From contig NC_134015.1 in NCBI RefSeq assembly GCF_040712315.1, positions 25,483,614-25,547,613 of the forward strand: a stretch of 64,000 bases of DNA, read 5' to 3'. Each line of letters begins with the position of its first letter. Position 1 is the first letter of the stretch. Position numbers and translations under genes: made by a program. This DNA is from Castanea sativa (lineage: Eukaryota > Streptophyta > Magnoliopsida > Fagales > Fagaceae). Shown one piece after another: positions 50,886-53,441 of this stretch. The notes under the pieces are model-generated. The model was not told the DNA's origin. It ran no database searches and saw nothing but the letters and a program-made list of their open reading frames with translations.

Positions 50886-53441
50886 CTAAACTCTTGGAGG
50901 GGGGTTTTGCTGAGAAGTGCTGGTTGCCTCGGTGTTTCTTAGCTCCAACGCAAAGGAAGACAGAACTTGCTTCCCTTTGTCTGCTGCATTTGTTGGAGGG
51001 ACATTGGGCTCCACAGTCTGGCTCAAGCCTTTCTCGGCATCCCCACTCCCTTCCATCTCTTTGTTGGAACCTGAAGGTTCTGTAGGATCTGGAACGAGCT
51101 TTGGGGCCATAGGAGGAAGAGCAGGAAAAGTTGCCTCAGGGGCAGGAGCAATAGCAAGAGTCTCTTCTATCTCCTGTATGTCTAGGGGAAGCCAAACGTT
51201 CTCGGACTTCCTCAACTCCGAGGCTGAAGGAACCCCTGCTACATTTAGAGCTTCCCCCTAGACTTGCTGACAGTACTCCCGGCACAAGGCCACGAAAGCC
51301 TCTGTCAGCTGCTCCTCTGTTGCAGCTACCCCTTCCTCATAACTCGCCTACTTGGCGGTCTGTAGAGAGCGTTTGAATGCGCCGGCTTCCTCCTTCATTC
51401 GCGCAAGCTCCCTCTCCAAATCCGAGCGCTCCCTTTGGGCTTGGGCTAGCTCGTCATCTTTTTCACGGAGAAGCTTGCGCTGCCCTTCTATTTGAGTCTT
51501 CATAGTCTTCAGGCTAGCCTCGGCACCGTCTCTTTCTCTTTTGAGATCAACCACCTGAGAGACGAGTTTCTCATTTTCTGCGAGGGCTTGGCTTAGGGAC
51601 TTCTCAGTCTCCATTCGAATGTCAAGCTCCAGTCTGGCCTTCTTCCGAGAGTCCTCTACAAACTTCTCGGCTACAAAGACTTCTTGAACGGCCTACATAA
51701 AGTGTTAGAGAATTAGATATAGCAGGACAATCATTAATAATCCAGTATTATGAAGAAGGGAATATTCATAAAAAATTAAACTTACTAGGGCTAATTCCCT
51801 TTTTAATGACAGGAATAGTTGAGGTTGGCTCATTCTTTCCAAGGTTTCCATGTCCTTGGGCAGCAGAAGAGGGTGCTCCAACACATCGGCCGGGTGGTGG
51901 GCGTTGCCTTGTTGGATTGCCCCCGATACTAGACCGGCAGGAAATTGGTGCACCGGCCCGCCTTAGGTCGGGAGACCAGGTGGCCGGTGCTCGGCGCACT
52001 TCGGCCACATCTCGGATCTCCTCACTCGACCGAACGAGCCCCGCCTTTGCCCTTGTCTAGCTTCGCCGCCGAGTTGGCCGCGTCGTTGTCTTGGTCTTTT
52101 TTGTTTTTCGCTGCCAGCCTCCTCGGCCTCCCCTTTCTTTTCTTTTCGGCTCCTCAACCGGAAGCTTGGGTTCGGCTAGAGGAGGGAGGTGGCAAGGATG
52201 GAAGAGCTGTCGGGACCCTCCCCGTTCTTCTTCCGGGCGACTTTTTCGCCTCTCTTGGTCGAAGGCCGTGAAGTCCGTCTATGTCCTCCTCGGAGTTGTT
52301 CAGGGGGGTGGGCAACAACGAACCCTTCAATTCTGGAGGCCTCGGTGGGCTCTTCTTCCTCGTCAGAAAGTACGACGAATTGGTTTCCTCGGGGTCTTTC
52401 GATGTCCTCGAGTTGAAAGTTATCTATTTCGTCGTCTAGTGTGTGTGAAGAGGACACCTGCTCCTCCGGATGCCAGCTTGCTTGGGAGTGTGTTGAGAGG
52501 GGGTTGCCGCGATAGGACGGTTGTACGTAATGGTGTTGGGGTCGTCGGGAAGGTCTTGGTCGGGCCTAAGAAGTGCGGCCCCGGCCACATGAATCCTTCT
52601 TCGCCTCCTGGCCACCCGCAATTATTGCGTTCTCGATCTCCTGAAAGTCCGAGGAGATAGGTTTGTACCCTAGAATCAAATGAGCCGCCCTAAGTTGTAA
52701 GTCTTCGCTGACGAACACTTCGGAGCGTAGCACTCGATTCAAATCTGCAACGTTGCAGTGGCTTAAGCGGGGGCGCACGTTTTGCTTATCTGCAAAGAAA
52801 AACATCCAAATAAACAAACATGGTCAGATGCGTAGAACATATAATAAATTAAAGTTAGACACTCAAGTAAATGCGAATGCACATTCCTAGATGATTTAGG
52901 GAGTTATGGGGTGGGAAGTTAAATCCTAAGGTGTCGCACCTGGATCTCCCCACTCAACTGGGCAGTGGGGGCCGTCGTGCTAGTTGCCAGAGACGATGAG
53001 GTAGTCATCCTTCATGCCTTTATTGGACTTGGGCAAACAGGAGATCAACCTAACTACGCTGGAGCGGGATTTGATGTAATAACCTACTCCAGTGAGTTTG
53101 TGGCATTCATATATAAAGACGACATCATGCCAGGTGAGGTTCAGACCCATTTGCTCGTTTAGAGTATCGACGCTTCCTAAGACCCTAAAAACGTTGGGAG
53201 CGCACTGATCGGGGCACAATCGATGGTTGCGAAGATACTCCCTGGTAACGGGTTTCATTGGGAGGGTCATCCCACCTTCTACGAAGGCGACCATTGGGAT
53301 GATGACCTCTCCGGCTTTCCTAGAACCAGCCACGGCTTCCGCCGGGCAGTATCTTAAACCTACGTCGCTGGGAATGAGGTACTTAGCTCTAAAACCCTCC
53401 ATCCCAGCAGCGGTATCTACTAGACACTTAAACTTTCCCAT
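50886..53441 (-). pseudogene. Antisense gene of the Tat-like element, 3 exons with two conserved introns (six stops)
   Basis: Minus-strand model: exon 1 53441-52940, intron 52939-52790 (GTGCG...TTGCAG), exon 2 52789-51786, intron 51785-51693 (GTAAGT...TGTAG), exon 3 51692-50886. The joined frame is 771 codons with no frameshift, interrupted only by stops at 52980, 52566, 52176, 51963, 51348 and 51258. Exon 1 starts MGKFKCLVDTAAGMEGF and contains IPMVAFVEGGMTLPM and RLCPDQCAPNVFRVLGSV. Exon 2 is acidic then basic (SDEEEEPTEAS, RSRKEKKGEAEEAG). Exon 3 is a long coiled coil (ENEKLVSQVVDLKRERDGAE) and a Pro-rich tail ending QQNPPPRV. The old element at 1-2361 shares the fold order and both intron positions. 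Extra antisense ORFs are known in the Tat lineage; their function is unknown. The N-terminal domain may relate to PF04195, which is inference. Confidence 0.82.

What the first reader, a model, noticed from the sequence alone, without database searches (positions are those of the whole stretch)
50886..53441. Spliced antisense gene carried by a Tat-like retrotransposon, with introns conserved in a second, older copy
On the strand opposite gag-pol, a 771-codon frame spans three exons with GT-AG introns of 150 and 93 bases. The old element at 1-2361 has the matching exons with introns of 166 and 109 bases at homologous positions and identical phases (1, then 0). In the young copy the frame holds over all 771 codons, broken only by six nonsense changes, which is hard to explain unless it was recently a real gene. 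An antisense gene can keep its introns through retrotransposition because the genomic RNA is the opposite strand. Extra antisense ORFs are known in the Tat lineage; I do not recall conserved introns being described. The domain order (globular N-terminus, acidic/basic linker, coiled coil, Pro-rich tail) suggests a structural or regulatory partner of Gag or of host chromatin, but that is speculation.
Basis: partly seen in the sequence, partly recalled or inferred. Interest (0 to 1): 0.87.

Follow-up and report, generated by a model that had tools for sequence, protein, structure and literature searches.

The report
Spliced backwards gene in plant retrotransposon
A common plant jumping gene carries, on its opposite strand, an extra gene interrupted by introns, and comparison of many copies indicates that natural selection kept this gene while the element was active, although the copy in this window is broken.

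Summary
On the minus strand at 53441-50886, inside a Tat/Retand-type Ty3 element (LTRs 97.0% identical), a three-exon frame has GT-AG introns of 150 and 93 bases, phases 1 and 0. All 39 further copies examined, from a genome inferred to be Castanea sativa, have both introns in place, three of them with one damaged splice site. Exons are near-open only in the predicted frames. Variants shared by six or more copies are depleted of amino-acid changes (omega-like 0.35; exon 1 0.08); singletons are near neutral (0.87). The old element and a third neighbour have both introns. A very divergent clade (family D) has three introns (phases 1, 1, 0), the first at a homologous place. Many annotated Quercus and Castanea proteins are contiguous at the same junctions. 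Two corrections: the window copy is more broken than stated (394 of 994 aligned exon-2 bases out of frame), and antisense TRP28/PF04195 genes are already known. I found no description of conserved introns in them in eight searches. No RNA data were available; splicing and a regulatory role are inferred.

The parts
42957..43717 (+). 5' LTR of the host element (element A)
   Evidence: 97.0% identical to 53947-54708 over 762 aligned columns
43894..45012 (+). gag frame
   Evidence: PF03732 Retrotrans_gag 28.8 bits
45028..49088 (+). pol region, broken into several frames; two RNase H-type matches (RT_RNaseH and RVT_3), integrase
   Evidence: RVT_1, RT_RNaseH, RVT_3, Integrase_H2C2, rve in 46326-49088; no Pfam match in 45028-45837; frames
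49141..50367 (.). tandem array, 151-bp unit, 8.1 copies, between pol and the antisense gene
   Evidence: Tandem Repeats Finder
52940..53441 (-). antisense gene exon 1 (502 nt), TRP28/PF04195-like stretch at aa 48-94
   Evidence: frame kept in the family; omega-like 0.08 for variants in 6 or more copies
52790..52939 (-). intron 1, 150 nt, GT-AG, phase 1
   Evidence: donor GT in 38 of 39 and acceptor AG in 38 of 39 further copies
51786..52789 (-). exon 2 (1004 nt), acidic and basic linker; in this copy partly out of frame
51693..51785 (-). intron 2, 93 nt, GT-AG, phase 0
   Evidence: donor GT in 39 of 39 and acceptor AG in 38 of 39 further copies
50886..51692 (-). exon 3 (807 nt), coiled coil and Pro-rich tail
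   Evidence: for its first 114 codons mostly coiled-coil Pfam models match, all below cut-off
53947..54708 (+). 3' LTR of element A
1890..2361 (-). exon 1 of the same gene in the older element B
   Evidence: tblastn with Quercus proteins; splice sites
1724..1889 (-). intron 1 of element B, 166 nt, GT-AG, phase 1
698..1723 (-). exon 2 of element B (frame decayed)
599..697 (-). intron 2 of element B, 99 nt, GT-AG
4..598 (-). exon 3 of element B, traceable to near the window edge; end not determined
3597..4099 (+). 3' LTR of element B; its 5' LTR, gag, pol and tandem array lie left of the window (offsets -6955 to -470)
   Evidence: 504-bp LTR pair 91.5% identical

Best explanation
It is a dead copy of a real accessory gene of Tat/Retand-type Ty3 LTR retrotransposons. 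The gene lies antisense between pol and the 3' LTR and is divided by spliceosomal introns. It is transcribed from its own or a 3'-LTR promoter towards pol, spliced in the nucleus, and makes a protein with an N-terminal TRP28-like domain, a charged linker with a basic (NLS-like, by eye) stretch, a coiled coil and a Pro-rich tail. The introns persist because the RNA that is reverse-transcribed is the other strand, on which they are not introns. SHOWN here: gene structure, its presence in 40 copies and in a divergent second clade, purifying selection on older variants, and agreement of annotated proteins with the junctions. INFERRED: transcription and splicing, nuclear location, and the role. The most likely role (my estimate about 0.5) is a nuclear regulator of the element's own chromatin, transcription or integration complex, working like HTLV HBZ/APH proteins.
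For: Frames. Splice sites in 39 further copies; splice dinucleotides deviate in 4 of 312 cells against 487 of 9165 for the rest of the introns (p 2e-4), and in family D in 7 of 168 against 376 of 3696 (p 0.004). Selection: omega-like 0.87 for singletons (646 variants), 0.35 for variants in 6 or more copies (137); exon 1 0.92 and 0.08. Family D (14 copies): 0.55, 0.21 and 0.10 with rising sharing. Family D introns vary in length (88-104, 65-98, 79-102) with 12-14 indel events per 100 nt against 0-1.3 in exons 1-3. The one family-D locus followed up is antisense to pol as well. At intron 1, inserts of 35-49 residues appear in 9 of 15 rows and of 24-37 residues in 9 of 27 rows, all in unnamed 'ena' frames, while named proteins mostly run on without a gap. 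A Castanea sativa record labelled isoform X2 (P0072) is contiguous at 3 of 3 family-D junctions.
Against: No RNA read was examined, so splicing is not shown directly; annotated proteins may rest on ab initio models. No copy of family A examined (0 of 40) is free of stops in the nominal frame. Within family A the intron/exon indel contrast is weak (6.0 and 7.5 against 2.4-5.2 per 100 nt), and family-D exon 4 (8.1) is as indel-rich as family-A introns. Exon 3 shows no constraint for the most shared variants (omega-like 0.87, 32 variants), perhaps because copies were found with an exon-3 probe. Of five clade-A Quercus proteins only one matched PF04195, at 17.4 bits, below cut-off. No TATAA word is conserved in the stretch of about 260 bases upstream that was checked. 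Solved relatives: only three weak matches, two to one coiled-coil protein.
Confidence: 0.85

Rival explanations
1. The antisense RNA is the functional product: it pairs with genomic RNA and tunes or silences the element, and the open frames are remnants.
For: The 2020 review PMC7264820 (passages) raises this for antisense ORFs in general and notes that both roles may hold at once.
Against: Amino-acid changes are depleted among shared variants in both clades, and lengths of family-D exons 1-3 are near constant while introns vary; an RNA-only role does not predict codon-level constraint.
Confidence: 0.07
2. A host gene with introns was captured recently by one family and is carried as a passenger.
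For: It has introns, like a host gene.
Against: Three neighbouring elements with LTRs of different length and a deeply divergent fourth family share it at the same place and strand; selection acts across copies. Vicient 2025 reports antisense TRP28 ORFs in 97% of its Retand clusters in eudicots and monocots (abstract and one section).
Confidence: 0.03
3. The 'introns' are not removed: they are spacers or recoding sites between separate short antisense ORFs.
For: Nine 'ena' frames and nine read through the intron-1 place in frame; no RNA evidence here. Most Retand clusters of Vicient 2025 have TRP28 in an ORF of 600 bp or more, which needs no intron.
Against: Conserved GT-AG ends, matching phases in two clades, frame changes across introns, and annotated proteins contiguous at the exact junctions. 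P0141, from a record of source 'lgn', joins exons at intron 1 and then seems to read on past the intron-2 donor, as a partly spliced transcript would.
Confidence: 0.05

Closest known systems
Antisense TRP28 (PF04195) ORFs of Retand elements (Vicient 2025, PMC11963269; passages and the first of two parts of one section seen)
   [quoted passage not shown] tandem arrays in the same region in about half; function unknown, DNA binding predicted.
   Different: That paper counts single ORFs, chiefly of 600 bp or more; the word intron does not occur in it. Five of its 63 tabulated clusters (three Sambucus, two Camellia) have TRP28 only in an ORF shorter than 600 nt, which a spliced exon 1 of about 500 nt would give; the others do not call for this.
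Maize Grande gene23 (Gomez-Orte 2013; not held, known from PMC7264820 passages and a citation title)
   Same: Antisense accessory gene with its own promoter; nuclear protein.
   Different: Introns are not mentioned in the passages I saw; original paper not read.
HTLV-1 HBZ and APH-2/3/4 (PMC10186651 passages)
   Same: Antisense retroviral genes; HBZ, APH-2, APH-3 and APH-4 come from spliced antisense transcripts, act mostly in the nucleus, and several inhibit LTR-driven transcription: the best working analogy.
   Different: No sequence relation shown; HBZ has a bZIP domain and none was matched here.
Ogre intron (Tat lineage by recall; PMC6317226 passage)
   Same: A spliceosomal intron inside a plant LTR retrotransposon.
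   [quoted passage not shown] here the introns are antisense in the accessory gene.
Anti-silencing proteins of Vandal DNA transposons (PMC11728184 passage; the name VANC is recalled)
   Same: Accessory TE gene that counters host silencing; a possible model of function.
   Different: Different transposon class; no sequence relation tested.

Membership tests
Tat/Retand lineage of Ty3 LTR retrotransposons | Ty3 order RT-RH-INT with an additional (archaeal-type) RNase H | tested here: met
   RVT_1, RT_RNaseH, RVT_3, Integrase_H2C2, rve in that order; that an aRH occurs in the Tat lineage is from PMC6317226; that the RVT_3 match is the archaeal type was not tested
Tat/Retand lineage of Ty3 LTR retrotransposons | Long pol-3'LTR region (2,933-6,566 bp), often with tandem arrays | tested here: met
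   49089-53946 is 4,858 bp with a 151-bp array; range
Tat/Retand lineage of Ty3 LTR retrotransposons | Antisense ORF with TRP28 (PF04195) | tested here: inconclusive
   Window exon 1 20.8 bits, below the 26.2 cut-off; one of five clade-A Quercus proteins 17.4 bits, four no match; family D above cut-off in 3 of 5 proteins; the two clades align by profile, prob 95.5, E 1.6e-8
Tat/Retand lineage of Ty3 LTR retrotransposons | Position in an RT tree | not tested
   No reference RT set was at hand
HBZ-like antisense retroviral genes | Spliced antisense mRNA from the 3' LTR | not testable with these tools
   No RNA data
HBZ-like antisense retroviral genes | bZIP domain (HBZ itself) | tested here: not met
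   No bZIP match in the Pfam scans of window pieces and ten homologues; coiled coil only
Ogre-type sense intron | Intron on the gag-pol strand between PROT and RT | tested here: not met
   Both introns are on the opposite strand, downstream of pol

The most novel reading that the evidence does not exclude
The antisense gene of Tat/Retand elements carried spliceosomal introns before its two clades seen here split, and may do so across flowering plants: intron 1 lies within two residues and in the same phase in clades with only 28% identical aligned residues. The introns would be kept because they help: they give the element a strand-specific, spliced, nuclear mRNA that looks like a host message and escapes surveillance aimed at intronless transposon RNA, while the replicating sense RNA never loses them.
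Probability: 0.25. Interest if true: 0.8.

Novelty: new variant of a known kind. Interest (0 to 1): 0.6.

Why it matters
Retrotransposons are expected to be intron-poor, because splicing of the copied RNA removes introns. An intron-bearing antisense gene kept by selection in abundant elements (1,744 and 5,623 first-look candidates in this genome) shows a way round this. It may explain why ORF surveys with 250-codon or 600-bp thresholds see pieces of the gene, and it gives fuller proteins to study. It also warns that some 'uncharacterized protein' genes in oak and chestnut annotations are transposon accessory genes.

Tried and rejected
Recent host-gene capture and chance frame were rejected. 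A binding-site idea: TCCGAGGA occurs 12 times in the array, 5 in the two LTRs and 3 in the spacers beside the gene, against 3 in gag-pol plus gene and 4 in 52 kb outside the element. But the one site tested beside the gene is not specially conserved across copies (19% of 8-mers there do as well), so I rest nothing on it.

Homology of intron 2 of family A with intron 3 of family D is not settled: both are phase 0 just before the coiled coil, but the local profile match is insignificant (prob 10) and the forced global one puts them three residues apart. For intron 1 the unconstrained profile alignment puts the two sites two residues apart.

Searches without result: viral contigs with the D profile; solved structures (D profile none; A profile three weak matches at E 0.025-0.061: two entries of one coiled-coil protein and a CRISPR protein). 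Literature: eight answered searches gave no description of introns in these antisense genes in listings or in the passages read; Gomez-Orte 2013, Steinbauerova 2011 and Kejnovsky 2006 were not read and could describe them.

Rows dropped: the family-A profile used 15 of 39 copies and family D 7 of 14, those with exact exon lengths; the window copy was left out of the selection test, which also skipped codons with fewer than 30 complete copies and variants whose reference codon was not seen. The copies are the 40 scored of 1,744 candidates, so they lean towards close relatives. Copies of element B's family could not be sought, as the genome search machine stayed busy.

Full report
What was checked. 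The ATG at 53441 (minus strand), exons of 502, 1004 and 807 nt and GT-AG introns 52939-52790 and 51785-51693 are as stated, with phases 1 and 0 and six internal stops. The gene lies opposite gag (43894-45012) and pol (to 49088) of an LTR element whose LTRs (42957-43717, 53947-54708) are 97.0% identical. A 151-bp tandem array (49141-50367) separates pol from the gene. Two RNase H-type matches, the 4.86-kb pol-3'LTR region and the array fit the Tat/Retand description in PMC6317226 and PMC11963269. I made no RT tree.

Where it is. The genome search places the window in a 716-Mb genome of 13 contigs. Four contig lengths (C4, C6, C10, C11) equal those of contigs holding proteins that NCBI names Castanea sativa, so I take the species to be Castanea sativa; that is an inference.

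Family A. The probe gave 1,744 first-look candidates, of which 40 were scored and listed, the window's own among them. I fetched the other 39. Intron 1 donor is GT in 38 of 39, its acceptor AG in 38; intron 2 donor GT in 39, acceptor AG in 38. Splice dinucleotides deviate in 4 of 312 cells against 487 of 9165 elsewhere in the introns. In the 17 of 39 copies with frame-keeping lengths there are 1-6 stops in about 770 codons; the other frames hold 8-18 per exon. None of the 40 copies is free of stops in the nominal frame.

Selection. Among the 39 copies, variants were classed by how many copies share them and compared with the same mutations placed at random on exon sites of the same base and context. 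Singletons look near neutral (413 non-synonymous, 203 synonymous; omega-like 0.87; 29 of 500 simulations reach the synonymous count). Variants in 6 or more copies do not (53 and 83; 0.35; 0 of 500). Exon 1 goes from 0.92 to 0.08. Exon 2 goes from 0.84 to 0.49, lowest (0.35) at 3-5 copies. Exon 3 shows constraint at 2 and 3-5 copies (0.49, 0.59) but not at 6 or more (0.87, 32 variants). Taken together this is what a gene gives that was needed while the element was copying and decays after insertion.

Exon 2 has many small indels of net zero length relative to relatives, and 394 of 994 aligned bases are out of the family frame; three relatives used in turn as ruler gave the same count.

Other elements. 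The 'old element' is a structured element B reaching from 6,955 bases left of the window to 4099, LTRs 91.5% identical, with gag, pol and array in the right order. A third element C, left of the window on the other strand, has LTRs 88.2% identical and the gene with introns of 144 and 80 nt at the same places. Both are single decayed copies.

Family D. PF04195 finds 150 scored hits, all above the cut-off, from 5,623 candidates in the genome. Thirty loci were returned; 29 of 30 align by DNA with the reference locus (itself included), 14 of them closely. The one locus whose neighbourhood I followed up lies antisense to a pol with four pieces 34-59% identical to that of element A. In the 14 close copies the gene has introns in phases 1, 1 and 0; introns carry 12-14 indel events per 100 nt, exons 1-3 carry 0-1.3, the partial exon 4 8.1. 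Poly-T runs in introns may raise their rate. Several copies have a damaged splice site (7 of 168 cells). Shared variants give omega-like 0.21 and 0.10, singletons 0.55. Profile comparison of A and D gives probability 95.5, E 1.6e-8 over 159 columns, 28% identity, with the two intron-1 sites two residues apart and both in phase 1. The second shared intron is only positionally similar.

Other species. Around junction 1 of clade A there are 15 rows: 5 annotated Quercus proteins contiguous (one with one extra residue), 1 Lithocarpus protein aligning poorly, and 9 'ena' frames with 35-49-residue inserts. Around junction 2 there are 24 rows: 16 contiguous, one 'ena' frame with a 32-residue insert, and 7 with gaps of 3-20 residues. 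For family D the figures are 15 contiguous, 9 inserts (24-37 residues, all 'ena') and 3 others at J1 (27 rows); 14, 1 and 2 at J2 (17 rows); 9, 0 and 2 at J3 (11 rows). Of the 15 at J1 one (P0079) departs in sequence just after the junction and one (P0141) is not an annotated protein. I read the inserts as introns translated in DNA-derived frames; what 'ena' and 'lgn' stand for is my inference. P0141 ('lgn') joins exon 1 to exon 2 and ends with a few residues after the intron-2 donor, as a partly spliced RNA would; an intron-loss copy would look the same. The named proteins found are from Fagaceae (Quercus, Castanea, Lithocarpus); how far the introns reach beyond that family was not tested.

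Function. The window's exon 1 matches TRP28 below cut-off, exon 3 mostly coiled-coil models. Vicient 2025 predicts DNA binding for TRP28, and Grande gene23 is reported nuclear with its own promoter (PMC11963269 and PMC7264820, passages). HTLV antisense genes, spliced and mostly nuclear, can repress LTR expression (PMC10186651, passages). I therefore judge a nuclear self-regulatory role most likely, an anti-silencing or integration-complex role next, a structural Gag partner least; none is shown.

Novelty. The antisense TRP28 gene is known. Conserved introns in it were not found in eight answered literature searches nor in the two papers closest to it, where the word intron does not occur; the 2020 review asks for antisense and spliced transcripts to be looked for. 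In Vicient 2025 most clusters have TRP28 in an ORF of 600 bp or more, so intron content outside Fagaceae is open. Three primary papers were not read.

Noticed in passing
window 51786-52789: The window copy's exon 2 has a cluster of small indels of net length zero and is 93.6% identical to one close relative where exons 1, 3 and both introns are about 97% identical. Cause unknown: local mutation, conversion or an assembly problem.
   Followed up: partly
window 49141-50367 and LTRs: The word TCCGAGGA recurs in the array, LTRs and spacers of element A, and CCGAGGA three times in the LTR of element C; not specially conserved at the one site tested.
   Followed up: partly
window 22515-23251: A stretch 78-85% similar to the element-A LTR in inverted orientation, perhaps a solo LTR of a related family.
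   Followed up: no
window 29289-31418 and 33397-34074: Long plus-strand frames of a host-like gene with a Cys-rich, PHD-finger-like region (resembling OBERON proteins from recall, not searched).
   Followed up: no
window 52061-52660: A plus-strand stop-free frame of 199 codons overlaps antisense exon 2; not scanned, probably incidental.
   Followed up: no
window 61733-62302: Frame resembling the end of a Ty1/copia RNase H (from recall, not searched).
   Followed up: no
window 56167-56238: tRNA-Met (CAT) predicted on the plus strand.
   Followed up: no
P0145: A Quercus suber record named alpha-N-acetylglucosaminidase-like carries PF04195 with two other domains, so a transposon gene is probably fused into a host gene model.
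   Followed up: no
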